Source of the DNA: Fibrobacter sp.
GTDB lineage: Bacteria > Fibrobacterota > Fibrobacteria > Fibrobacterales > Fibrobacteraceae
DNA: 33,350 bases
Direction: 5' to 3'
NCBI RefSeq assembly: GCF_017545445.1
Contig: NZ_JAFWOM010000040.1
Coordinates: 1-33,350, forward strand
The position numbers and the translations under genes were made by a program. Of the stretch, positions 30,887 to 33,350 are shown in pieces; the stretch's first letter is position 1, and the number at the start of each line of letters is the position of its first letter. The notes under the pieces are model-generated. The model made no database searches. It had not been told where the DNA came from and worked only from the letters and a program-made list of their open reading frames with translations.

Positions 30887-31087
30887 ATGAAACGATTTTT
30901 TGTGGGAATGCTCCTTGCTGTATCGCTTTTGGGAATTGTTGGATGTACTGAGTATGACCCGAATAGTACAGAAAGGCAAGATCTTCTTGAACAATGCTTG
31001 AATGAGCCGACTCTTCCGATATGCCGAGATAATCCAGGAAATACAGAGCCGGATGATCCTCCTTCAATGGATGAGGATGATTTTTAG
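30887..31087 (+). CDS. Small acidic lipoprotein
   Basis: ATG 30887 (AGAGG upstream) is preferred over the in-frame ATG at 30860 because it starts a clean lipoprotein signal, MKRFFVGMLLAVSLLGIVGC (Cys20). The 66-residue product leaves a mature part of about 47 residues, very acidic and Pro-rich (EPDDPPSMDEDDF), with two more Cys (CLNEPTLPIC) that may form a disulfide. No family is recognised. It may be an outer-membrane or periplasmic lipoprotein. It lies between the HU gene and the carB leader. Confidence 0.7.
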   Translation: MKRFFVGMLLAVSLLGIVGCTEYDPNSTERQDLLEQCLNEPTLPICRDNPGNTEPDDPPSMDEDDF

Positions 31088-31096
31088 CAATTCCTA

Positions 31097-31127
31097 TTGA
31101 AAGGCGCGTTTACATATTCTATATTTG
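31097..31127 (+). promoter_or_regulatory. Probable carB promoter
   Basis: TTG at 31097-31099, 20-base spacer, then a perfect TATATTTG at 31120-31127. Transcription would begin near 31131-31135, about 185 nt upstream of carB, leaving a long leader. Confidence 0.6.
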
Positions 31128-31161
31128 CGCAAGTTTAAGTTTTTGCGAAATAGGGAAGTTG

Positions 31162-31296
31162 ATGAACGTGATGCTGAAAAACTTGAAGCGCAATTGCGAC
31201 ATGCATAGTGTCGCGCCGTTCGCTGCTTTTGCTATTTCCAATGTTGTTTTTAATGCTGGACCATTTGGTTCAGCTTTTTTGTTTTTTAATAAATAA
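31162..31296 (+). CDS. Putative 44-residue leader peptide of carB
   Basis: ATG 31162 has AGGGA at 31152-31156, 5 nt upstream. The ORF codes 44 residues, begins MNVMLKNLKRNCDMHSVAPF and ends in FFNK with TAA at 31294-31296. It runs straight through the hairpin at 31196-31214, the U-rich tract (about 31221-31254) and the whole terminator at 31255-31287, stopping 22 nt before carB. In the enteric pyrBI operon a leader peptide of the same length overlaps the attenuator in the same way; a ribosome close behind RNA polymerase stops the terminator from forming. I infer the same role here: translation of the leader matters, not the peptide itself. Confidence 0.6.
   Translation: MNVMLKNLKRNCDMHSVAPFAAFAISNVVFNAGPFGSAFLFFNK
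31196..31214 (+). promoter_or_regulatory. Possible pause hairpin in the carB leader
   Basis: GCGACA, loop TGCATAG, TGTCGC: six perfect pairs, followed by a T-rich stretch (GCTTTTGCTATTTCC...GTTGTTTTTAAT) where RNA polymerase could slow when UTP is low. Confidence 0.55.
31255..31287 (+). terminator. Attenuator terminator in the carB leader
   Basis: GCTGGACC, loop ATTT, GGTTCAGC: eight pairs with one wobble, then TTTTTTGTTTTTT. It is a convincing intrinsic terminator placed upstream of carB and inside the leader ORF, so it must be bypassed for carB expression. Confidence 0.75.
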
Positions 31297-31318
31297 TTAG
31301 TTCAACGGAGAAAACAAA

Positions 31319-33350
31319 ATGAAGATTGAAGGCATCGACAAAGTCCTTATCATCGGTTCTGGCCCGATCGTAATCGGTCAGGCTTGCGAATTCGACTATT
31401 CCGGCACCCAGGCTTGCAAGGCCCTGCGCGAACAGGGTTACAAGATTGTGCTCGTGAACTCTAACCCGGCTACCATCATGACCGACCCGGTCATGGCCGA
31501 TGCCACCTACATCGAACCGCTGAACGTCGCCCGCTTGACCCAGATTATCGAAAAGGAACGCCCGCAGGCCCTCCTCCCGAACTTGGGCGGTCAGACTGGC
31601 TTGAACCTCGCTTGTGCCCTCAACAAGGCCGGCGTCTTGGACAAGTACGGCGTGAAGGTCATCGGTGTGAACCTCGACGCTATCGAACGCGGCGAAGACC
31701 GTGAAGTCTTCAAGGAAACCATGCAGAAGCTCGGCATCGACACCCCGCGCTCCGGCATTTGCCACTCCGTGGAAGAAGCCGAAAAGATCGTTGCAGAAAT
31801 CGGCTACCCGGTCGTCGTTCGCCCGGCATACACCATGGGCGGTGCAGGCGGCGGTTTCTGCTACAATGTGGAAGAACTCCGCACCATTTGCTCCAACGGT
31901 CTTGAACTCTCGATGACGCACCAGTGCCTCATCGAAGAATCTATCCTCGGTTGGGAAGAACTCGAAGTCGAAGTGGTCCGCGATTCCAAGAACCAGATGA
32001 TCGCCATCTGCTTCATCGAAAACATCGACCCGGTGGGCGTGCATACCGGTGACTCCTTCTGCGCAGCCCCGTTCCTCACCATCGACAAGAAGCTCGAAGA
32101 AGAACTGAAGGAAAAGGCCTTCAAGATTGTGGAATCTATCGGCGTGATTGGCGGTACCAACGTGCAGTTCGCTCACGACCCGAAGACCGGCCGCGTGGTG
32201 ATTATCGAAATCAACCCGCGTACCTCTCGTTCTTCTGCTCTTGCTTCCAAGGCTACCGGCTTCCCGATTGCCCTCATTTCTGCAAAACTCGCCGCAGGCC
32301 TCACCCTCGACCAGATTCCGTACTGGCGCGATGGCTCCCTCGAAAAGTACACCCCGAGCGGTGACTACGTGGTGCTCAAGTTCGCTCGCTGGGCATTCGA
32401 AAAGTTCCGCGGCGTGGATGACTGCCTCGGCACCCAGATGAAGGCCGTGGGCGAAGTCATGGCTATCGGCAAGACCTACAAGGAAACCCTCCAGAAGGCT
32501 ATCCGCGGCCTCGAAAACGGTCGCTCCGGCCTCGGCTTTGCCAAGGACTTCAACAAGAAGAGCAAGGAAGAACTCCTTGAAATGATGAAGACCGCTTCTT
32601 CCGAACGCCACTTCCAGATGTACGAAGCCCTCCGTAAGGGTGCTACCGACGAAGAAATCTTCGCCGCCACTTACGAAAAGGCTTACTTCGTGCAGCAGAT
32701 GCGCGAACTCGTTCAGCTCGAAGAAGAAATGCTCAAGACTCCGGGCCGCCTGCCTGCTGACGAACTCCTCATCAAGGCCAAGAAGGATGGTTTCAGCGAC
32801 AAGTACATCGCGAAGATCCTCGGCATCCGCGAAAAGGATGTGCGCAAGAAGCGCACCGAACTCGGTGTGGTCGAAGGCTGGTGCGCAGTGCCGGTGAGCG
32901 GCGTGAAGGACCAGTACTACTACTACAGCACCTACAACTGCAAGGACGAATCTACCGCTTCCAACAACCCGAAGAAGATCATGATTCTCGGCGGTGGCCC
33001 GAACAGAATCGGTCAGGGTATCGAATTCGACTACTGCTGCTGCCACGCTGCAATGGCCCTCCGCGAAATGGGTTACGAAACCATCATGGTGAACTGCAAC
33101 CCTGAAACGGTTTCTACCGACTACGATACTTCCGACAAGCTGTACTTCGAACCGGTTTCTTTGGAAGACGTGCTCCAGATTTACCACAAGGAAAAGCCGG
33201 CTGGCGTGATCGTGCAGTTCGGTGGTCAGACTCCATTGAAGCTGGCTAAGAAACTTGAGGCTGAAGGTGTACCTATCATCGGTACCTCACCTACCGACAT
33301 CGACCGTGCAGAGGATCGTAAGCTGTTCCAGGAAGTTGTAAACAAGCTAC
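31319..33350 (+). CDS. carB: Carbamoyl-phosphate synthase large subunit, 3' end outside the window
   Basis: CarB makes carbamoyl phosphate, the precursor of pyrimidines and arginine. About 677 codons are present of the usual 1,050-1,100. The first ATP-grasp half is complete: N-terminal IIGSGPIVIGQACEFDYSGT, the ATP-grasp segment VVVRPAYTMGGAGGGF, IEINPRTSRSSALASKATGF, and the oligomerisation domain. The second half begins at about residue 555 (MILGGGPNRIGQGIEFDYCC, QFGGQTPLKLA). GGAG precedes the ATG. Codon use is strongly C-biased, indicating high expression. The small subunit gene carA is not adjacent upstream. The leader with its attenuator suggests control by pyrimidine supply. Confidence 0.95.
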   Translation, partial: MKIEGIDKVLIIGSGPIVIGQACEFDYSGTQACKALREQGYKIVLVNSNPATIMTDPVMADATYIEPLNVARLTQIIEKERPQALLPNLGGQTGLNLACALNKAGVLDKYGVKVIGVNLDAIERGEDREVFKETMQKLGIDTPRSGICHSVEEAEKIVAEIGYPVVVRPAYTMGGAGGGFCYNVEELRTICSNGLELSMTHQCLIEESILGWEELEVEVVRDSKNQMIAICFIENIDPVGVHTGDSFCAAPFLTIDKKLEEELKEKAFKIVESIGVIGGTNVQFAHDPKTGRVVIIEINPRTSRSSALASKATGFPIALISAKLAAGLTLDQIPYWRDGSLEKYTPSGDYVVLKFARWAFEKFRGVDDCLGTQMKAVGEVMAIGKTYKETLQKAIRGLENGRSGLGFAKDFNKKSKEELLEMMKTASSERHFQMYEALRKGATDEEIFAATYEKAYFVQQMRELVQLEEEMLKTPGRLPADELLIKAKKDGFSDKYIAKILGIREKDVRKKRTELGVVEGWCAVPVSGVKDQYYYYSTYNCKDESTASNNPKKIMILGGGPNRIGQGIEFDYCCCHAAMALREMGYETIMVNCNPETVSTDYDTSDKLYFEPVSLEDVLQIYHKEKPAGVIVQFGGQTPLKLAKKLEAEGVPIIGTSPTDIDRAEDRKLFQEVVNKL

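What the first reader, a model, noticed from the sequence alone, without database searches (positions are those of the whole stretch)
31097..31319. carB leader looks like a pyrBI-type UTP-sensitive transcription attenuator
Read directly, in order: a TATATTTG promoter box; a leader ORF of 44 codons with its own ribosome binding site (ATG 31162); a perfect 6-bp hairpin at 31196-31214; a T-rich tract to about 31254; an 8-bp terminator hairpin with T6-G-T6 at 31255-31287; the leader stop codon at 31294, after the terminator; then carB at 31319. In the pyrBI operon of enteric bacteria, a 44-residue leader, a pause hairpin, a U-rich tract and an attenuator inside the leader ORF have this order, and low UTP stalls polymerase so the ribosome catches up and blocks termination. 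I infer the same control of carB, in a distant phylum and a different pyrimidine gene. I know of no report of this in Fibrobacter.
Basis: partly seen in the sequence, partly recalled or inferred. Interest (0 to 1): 0.85.

Follow-up and report, generated by a model that had tools for sequence, protein, structure and literature searches.

The report
Twin ribosome-gated switches on carbamoyl-phosphate genes
In gut bacteria of what is very likely the genus Fibrobacter, both sets of genes for making carbamoyl phosphate are preceded by a tiny reading frame that contains a transcription stop signal and runs on to the gene, an arrangement that would likely let the genes be read only when the building block UTP is scarce, as is known for a different gene in E. 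coli.

Summary
In 32 of 32 distinct genus leaders the carB leader ORF stays open through the terminator and stops 14-28 nt before carB. In 17 of these, repeat-like inserts lie between terminator and carB: the leader frame stays open in 17 of 17, the other frames in 5 and 0 of 17. The peptide drifts freely: 10 synonymous and 90 non-synonymous codon changes, against 160 and 20 in carB over the same 10 pairs. The frame is kept, not the peptide.

New here: the genus's other carbamoyl-phosphate synthase operon (carA, usually followed by CTP synthase) has a dissimilar leader of the same design in 17 of 17 loci examined, the window's own genome included; its ORF starts about 10 nt after the promoter box and overlaps carA in 10 of 17.

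pyrBI-type attenuation by transcription-translation coupling is the best reading. UTP as the signal is inferred (CTP synthase linkage, U-rich tract, invariant GUUU start region); no experiment was possible. New variant of a known kind.

The parts
31097..31127 (+). sigma-70-like promoter, TTGAAA - 17 bp - TATATT(TG)
   Evidence: box present in 23 of 23 loci found by CarB protein
31128..31138 (+). discriminator and predicted initially transcribed region CGCAAGTTTAA; start predicted near 31132-31133, giving (A)GUUUAA
   Evidence: invariant apart from two positions (R) in the leaders compared; transcription start not mapped
31147..31159 (+). 5' strand of the predicted long-range helix P1, overlapping the leader's ribosome-binding site AGGGAAG
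   Evidence: folding and clade-wise covariation
31162..31296 (+). leader ORF, 44 codons, stop TAA 31294-31296
   Evidence: open in 32 of 32 distinct leaders
31196..31214 (+). central hairpin GCGACA-loop-TGTCGC
   Evidence: central hairpin in each of the four clade folds
31224..31239 (+). 3' strand of predicted helix P1
31224..31254 (+). U-rich tract; U5 run 31247-31251 lies 8-12 nt after the end of P1
   Evidence: U content 47% against 20% after the ATG, higher in 32 of 32
31255..31287 (+). intrinsic terminator inside the leader ORF, T6-G-T6 tail
   Evidence: read in the same frame in 32 of 32
31305..31311 (+). putative carB ribosome-binding site ACGGAGA, between leader stop and carB
   Evidence: read from sequence
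31319..33350 (+). carB, carbamoyl-phosphate synthase large subunit, runs off the window
   Evidence: NF003671 1005.7 bits, cut-off 599

Best explanation
The carB leader is predicted to be a pyrBI-type attenuator: a terminator lies inside a short leader ORF, and low UTP likely makes RNA polymerase pause in the U-rich tract just before it, so that the ribosome translating the leader would catch up, keep the terminator from folding and let transcription enter carB. With ample UTP the polymerase would outrun the ribosome, the terminator would fold and the RNA would end near 31287. Shown by sequence and comparison: promoter-like box, ORF, terminator, U-rich tract, kept frame, free peptide, and a second device of the same design on the carA-(pyrG)-carB2 operon. 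Predicted from folding and covariation: a helix P1 between the 5' end and the stretch just before the U tract, which could stabilise the pause and hide the leader's ribosome site while no ribosome is there. Inferred: that UTP is the signal, and that the leader ribosome must run up to the gene, to hand over to its translation or to shield the RNA from Rho.
For: Same order of parts in 32 of 32 distinct leaders, stop 14-28 nt before carB. Leader frame open through inserts 17 of 17, other frames 5 and 0 of 17. Peptide free, frame kept: 10 syn and 90 nonsyn changes against 160 and 20 in carB. U-rich tract before the terminator 32 of 32. Four clades each fold into P1, central hairpin and terminator. 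Second device on carA in 17 of 17 loci, with its own U-rich tract 17 of 17. CTP synthase beside carA in 11 of 16 genus loci searched. AAGUUU at the predicted start resembles GUUUGC of E. coli carAB P1, where breaking the T run abolishes UTP control (PMC6245113 passages). The pyrL terminator depends on coupling of translation to transcription in E. coli (PMC5021804 passages).
Against: No measurement of RNA ends, pausing or UTP response. The P1 swap test is grouping-dependent (p median 0.007 with 17 groups, 0.067 with nine). By the same 45-nt measure E. coli pyrL shows no U excess before its terminator (31% against 36%). The leader is kept open far past the terminator, more than the classic model needs. 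Single-genome rarity is modest (2 of 7 candidates at 429 terminators). Some leaders lack a good ribosome-binding site (for example L005, L008). Inserts are shared between relatives, so the Fisher p of 1.8e-9 is too small. carA leaders hold 2-9 Arg codons over their whole length.
Confidence: 0.68

Rival explanations
1. A coupling-based attenuator with another signal: the leader senses general translation or growth state (ribosome supply, ppGpp, other NTPs), not UTP.
For: Anatomy proves at most that translation must cross the terminator; any change in ribosome or polymerase speed would act.
Against: U-rich tracts directly before both terminators; invariant GUUU start region at carB; CTP synthase in the second operon.
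Confidence: 0.16
2. A protein or ligand works the terminator: PyrR, present in the genus, or an unknown RNA-binding regulator or riboswitch ligand.
For: pyrR stands before pyrB; the leader folds into a structure kept in four clades.
Against: No Rfam family reaches its gathering score at either leader; no loop sequence is shared between clades; a ligand switch would not need an open frame through terminator and inserts.
Confidence: 0.06
3. Amino-acid attenuation (arginine above all) or a nascent-peptide arrest governs read-through.
For: Carbamoyl phosphate also feeds arginine; carA leaders hold 2-9 Arg codons over their whole length.
Against: 0-2 Arg codons before the carB terminator in 32 leaders; no conserved peptide, codon positions 53/47/40.
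Confidence: 0.03
4. Translational coupling only: the leader ORF serves to feed ribosomes to carB or carA, and the terminator matters little.
For: Stops lie close to the gene or overlap it; inserts are kept open up to the gene.
Against: A terminator is kept inside the ORF at two dissimilar leaders, which coupling alone does not need.
Confidence: 0.05
5. No regulation: an upstream terminator with a chance ORF over it.
For: Chance ORFs over terminators occur: most of the other 5 of 7 candidates in G028 look like it.
Against: Frame kept in 32 of 32 leaders and through 17 of 17 inserts while the peptide drifts; a promoter-like box stands directly upstream.
Confidence: 0.02

Closest known systems
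pyrBI (pyrL) attenuator of Escherichia coli
   Same: Promoter, short leader ORF (44 codons in both), central hairpin, terminator inside the ORF, leader stop at the structural gene (3 nt before pyrB; 14-28 nt before carB), and a predicted long-range helix between the ribosome-binding region and a U-rich stretch.
   Different: Other phylum and other genes (carB; carA-pyrG-carB2); two devices per genome; leaders vary from 43 to 102 codons; the carA leader starts about 10 nt after the box; the U-rich tract is longer. UTP control is shown in E. coli, not here.
UTP-sensitive reiterative transcription at E. coli carAB P1 (GUUUGC)
   Same: Same gene function and a GUUU at the predicted start.
   Different: Start not mapped here; E. 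coli carAB P1 works at initiation, and PMC6245113 describes no attenuator there (passages).
Start-site switching at E. coli pyrC (recalled)
   Same: 12 of 17 carA leaders hold their ATG in a 5'-end hairpin CCGAU..AUCGG that would need the first C residues.
   Different: Starts unmapped; 5 of 17 lack the hairpin, four of them with CCCCG before the ATG.
carA motif of Polynucleobacter (PMC8632094, passages)
   Same: A conserved element directly upstream of carA.
   Different: Described there as an imperfect hairpin next to the carA ribosome site, proposed to act on translation; no leader ORF over a terminator is mentioned in the passages seen.

Membership tests
pyrBI-type attenuator | Short leader ORF after the promoter | tested here: met
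   32 of 32 distinct carB leaders, 17 of 17 carA leaders
pyrBI-type attenuator | Leader ORF has a ribosome-binding site | tested here: inconclusive
   Window AGGGAAG; several others weak; carA leader has almost no 5' leader
pyrBI-type attenuator | Intrinsic terminator inside the ORF, stop codon beyond it at the gene | tested here: met
pyrBI-type attenuator | U-rich tract after a hairpin and before the terminator | tested here: met
   32 of 32 and 17 of 17; E. coli pyrL itself shows no excess by this measure
pyrBI-type attenuator | Leader peptide sequence unimportant | tested here: met
   (10 pairs); shown for carB leaders only
pyrBI-type attenuator | Gene of pyrimidine synthesis | tested here: met
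   carB, carA, pyrG by NCBIfam; carbamoyl phosphate also feeds arginine
pyrBI-type attenuator | UTP-sensitive pausing and ribosome-dependent read-through | not testable with these tools
   needs in vitro and in vivo transcription
pyrBI operon proper | The regulated gene is pyrB | tested here: not met
   carB and carA; in Fibrobacter pyrB follows pyrR and no terminator was found before it (19 of 19 loci, a weak negative)
Amino-acid attenuator | Clustered codons of the sensed amino acid | tested here: not met
   0-2 Arg codons before the terminator in carB leaders; no conserved codons
PyrR-type attenuator | PyrR-binding RNA | tested here: not met
   No such Rfam match at E up to 5 (carB leader) or 2 (carA leader); the PyrR gene is present. 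That Rfam holds a PyrR site is recalled
UTP-sensitive reiterative transcription | U run at the transcription start | tested here: inconclusive
   AAGUUU invariant near the predicted start; start unmapped

The most novel reading that the evidence does not exclude
Fibrobacter puts its whole carbamoyl-phosphate supply, and with it CTP synthase, under two independently evolved ribosome-gated attenuators, each doubly tuned to pyrimidine nucleotides: by an NTP-sensitive start (GUUU at carB, C-rich CCG-AUG at carA) and by polymerase-ribosome coupling over a U-rich tract. The leader ribosome is not only an antiterminator but must run into the gene, so that leader translation also licenses translation of the enzyme.
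Probability: 0.35. Interest if true: 0.85.

Novelty: new variant of a known kind. Interest (0 to 1): 0.76.

Why it matters
The pyrBI attenuator is a textbook case known from enteric bacteria. Its logic in a distant phylum, on a different enzyme and at two dissimilar leaders in one genome would mean that coupling-based sensing of nucleotides arises repeatedly and is under-counted: it keeps neither RNA nor peptide sequence, so family searches miss it. Repeat inserts that stay in frame up to the gene are a natural experiment: they indicate that translation of the stretch is under selection, and ask why it must reach the gene. It also makes transcription-translation coupling outside the Proteobacteria directly testable.

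Tried and rejected
Rfam at the carB leader: seven matches, all far below gathering scores; at the carA leader none. Alifold on all 32 leaders at once found only the terminator, because the clades do not align well; four clades (30 of 32 leaders; L006 and L042 left out) were folded apart instead. The first genome scan was too strict and missed carA (68 terminators, 9 hits); the second covered 132 terminators with 6 hits, the third 429 with 7. Of its other five hits one looks like FeoA before FeoB (recalled); none was followed. A scan of 74 of the 80 carB loci (six left out for short or absent upstream DNA) found one leader ORF over a terminator, L069, with 0.0 expected from shuffles; it missed the true case L061, so its sensitivity is low. 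The first codon-position control on carB was spoiled, probably by broken or shifted sequences (36 pairs), and repeated on 10 clean pairs. UMP-pocket residues (positions recalled) do not separate the two CarB types. Nine paper searches (one search was too loose to inform) listed no paper whose title or abstract start tells of such an attenuator on carB or carA or in Fibrobacter; (Fibrobacter succinogenes with transcription start site) held none. Papers were seen as listings only, except passages of PMC6245113, PMC5021804, PMC8632094 and PMC2965389. Most subscription journals are not in the library.

Full report
Observation. The window lies in G000, a genome of 4.88 Mb in 176 contigs with 7% contamination. 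The genus is taken to be Fibrobacter because contig G010:C9 has the length and carB position of the named record JAKSIH010000017.1, Fibrobacter sp. Horse_feces16; this is an inference.

Comparison of the carB leaders. A CarB search over 60 related genomes gave 23 genus loci with upstream DNA, found without any leader pattern (L001-L022 and L024; L023 starts inside carB). All 23 have the box TATATTTGC(G/A)CAAG, a leader ATG 41-46 nt after its start and an ORF through a terminator (for L022 the terminator is read). The pattern TATATTTGCNCAAGTTTRA occurs in 35 of 41 genus genomes, once in 33 and twice in two. Together these give 52 rows and 32 distinct leaders with carB; L040 ends before carB and was dropped, and four sites without a locus were not examined. 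Leaders have 43 to 101 codons. All 32 stop 14-28 nt before carB. The terminator is read in the same frame in 32 of 32, over 11 different distances from the ATG (93 to 126 nt); the motif was sought in the ORF's translation, so that a leader with another frame would have failed the script. Both other frames from the ATG close before the end of the terminator in all 31 leaders computed (L015, whose contig begins close upstream, failed there and is read).

Inserts keep the frame. In 17 of the 32, more than 60 nt separate terminator and carB; many of these stretches look like short dispersed repeats (GTCATCCTGAGC...GAAGGATCC and others). The leader frame has no stop from the terminator to 30 nt before carB in 17 of 17; the other two frames in 5 and 0 of 17 (Fisher p 1.8e-9). 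Relatives share inserts, so the p value is too small, but several different inserts are present. Covering the terminator does not require this; it suggests that the ribosome should reach the gene.

The peptide is free. In 10 pairs with clean carB sequence the leader differs at codon positions 53/47/40, with 10 synonymous and 90 non-synonymous codon changes; carB in the same pairs differs at 16/10/166, with 160 and 20. A wider set of 36 pairs gave 217/136/171 and 63 against 323 for the leader (its carB control was spoiled and is not used). Frame kept and peptide free is what ribosome-coupled attenuation predicts, and it argues against an arrest peptide. Arg codons number 0-2 before the terminator.

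RNA. The 45 nt before the terminator are 47% U on average against 20% in the 45 nt after the ATG, higher in 32 of 32; by the same measure E. coli pyrL shows no excess (31% against 36%). Four clades (30 of 32 leaders), aligned and folded apart, each give a helix (P1) between the 5' region and the stretch just before the U tract, a central hairpin and the terminator, with two-sided changes at 4, 4, 3 and 7 pairs over the whole structures, terminator included; 23 of 434, 5 of 282, 7 of 160 and 18 of 210 cells do not pair. Own segments pair better than swaps between clades or shuffles (-13.1 against -10.7 and -10.1 kcal/mol), but the permutation test depends on grouping: p median 0.007 (0.001-0.023) with 17 groups, 0.067 (0.007-0.27) with nine. 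In 28 of 32 single folds at least four long-range pairs form, and in 22 of 32 a run of four U starts 5-12 nt after the helix, a distance at which a hairpin can act on a paused polymerase (general knowledge). E. coli pyrL is predicted to fold in a like way.

The second device. The genus has two carB paralogues, the other about 62% identical, which in G028 lies in an operon carA-pyrG-carB2. Upstream of carA, 17 of 17 genus loci examined (L142, L147-L161, L174; the window's own genome is L153; L163, which lacks the N-terminus, was left out) have a leader ORF that starts about 10 nt after a box such as TACTATATTTTG, crosses a terminator (GGCAAA(A/G)GC..GCTTTTGCC, then T-rich) and stops -8 to +26 nt from the carA start, with overlap in 10 and an ATGA overlap in 9 of 17. 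Its ATG-to-terminator distances (125 to 188 nt, six values) share one phase. In the five loci with more than 80 nt after the terminator (L148, L152, L153, L158, L160) the leader frame comes within 30 nt of carA in 5 of 5, each other frame in 1 of 5. Its U-rich tract is 53% against 20%, 17 of 17. In 12 of 17 the ATG lies in a 5' hairpin CCGAU..AUCGG. Leader sequence, terminator and start differ from those of the carB device, so the two look independent. A scan of 120 stretches (2.39 Mb with overlaps) of G028 found 7 candidates at 429 terminators, both carbamoyl-phosphate synthase loci among them. Before pyrR-pyrB-pyrC (19 of 19 loci) and pyrE (7 of 7) no terminator was found, but the same scan flagged only 3 of 15 carA loci, all of which carry one, so these negatives are weak. 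carA of G038, from another family of the order, has no such leader (L162), and carB of Fibrobacteria bacterium AD312 has a TATATTTG box without a leader (L064).

Signal. The pyrimidine link rests on CTP synthase beside carA in 11 of the 16 genus carA loci searched (L142, L147-L156; L157 and L161 have only 37-39% matches, L158-L160 none), on the U-rich tracts, and on the invariant AAGUUU near the predicted carB start, which resembles GUUUGC of E. coli carAB P1, where breaking the T run abolishes UTP control (PMC6245113, passages). The looser pattern TATATTTG-N5-GTTT occurs five times in the window's genome, so it is not a common promoter feature. PyrR is encoded in the genus but no PyrR site was found. 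carA leaders hold 2-9 Arg codons over their whole length, so arginine is less well excluded there. UTP sensing remains inferred.

Verdict. A well-supported pyrBI-like attenuator on carB, in fact one of a pair; new as to phylum, genes and leader anatomy; mechanism class known. Nine paper searches listed nothing on this in Fibrobacter or for carB or carA (listed under Tried and rejected); the library lacks most subscription journals.

Noticed in passing
L142 10271-13300 (G028:C2) and L153 (own genome, G000:C44): The carA-pyrG-carB2 operon has its own leader ORF over a terminator, overlapping the carA start; it became part of the finding.
   Followed up: yes
L069 1821-1999: carB of an Opitutales MAG (Verrucomicrobia) is preceded by a 43-codon ORF that spans a terminator and stops 32 nt before carB, perhaps an independent case.
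   Followed up: partly
window 31275-31287 and 31311-31319: The terminator tail UUUUGUUUU is complementary to AAAACAAAA in front of the carB start; the tail might mask carB's ribosome site when the leader is not translated.
   Followed up: no
window 31125-31132: The promoter holds the palindrome TTGCGCAA (TTGCACAA in some relatives), a possible operator.
   Followed up: no
L062-L069 (gut MAGs called Spirochaetaceae, Treponema, Verrucomicrobia, Kiritimatiellae, Opitutales): CarB 74-84% identical to the window's occurs in gut MAGs of other phyla, which suggests gene transfer or mixed bins. The Treponema copy (L063) has a terminator 57 nt before carB without an ORF over it.
   Followed up: no
L177-L196: pyrB follows a PyrR gene and is followed by a pyrC-like ORF in the genus; no terminator was found upstream.
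   Followed up: partly
L002, L007, L013, L014, L053, L056 between terminator and carB: Short repeat-like elements (GTCATCCTGAGC...GAAGGATCC and others) sit directly behind the attenuator terminator in many species.
   Followed up: partly
window 30887-31087: A short lipoprotein-like ORF (MKRFFVGMLLAVSLLGIVGC...) ends 10 nt before the carB promoter.
   Followed up: no
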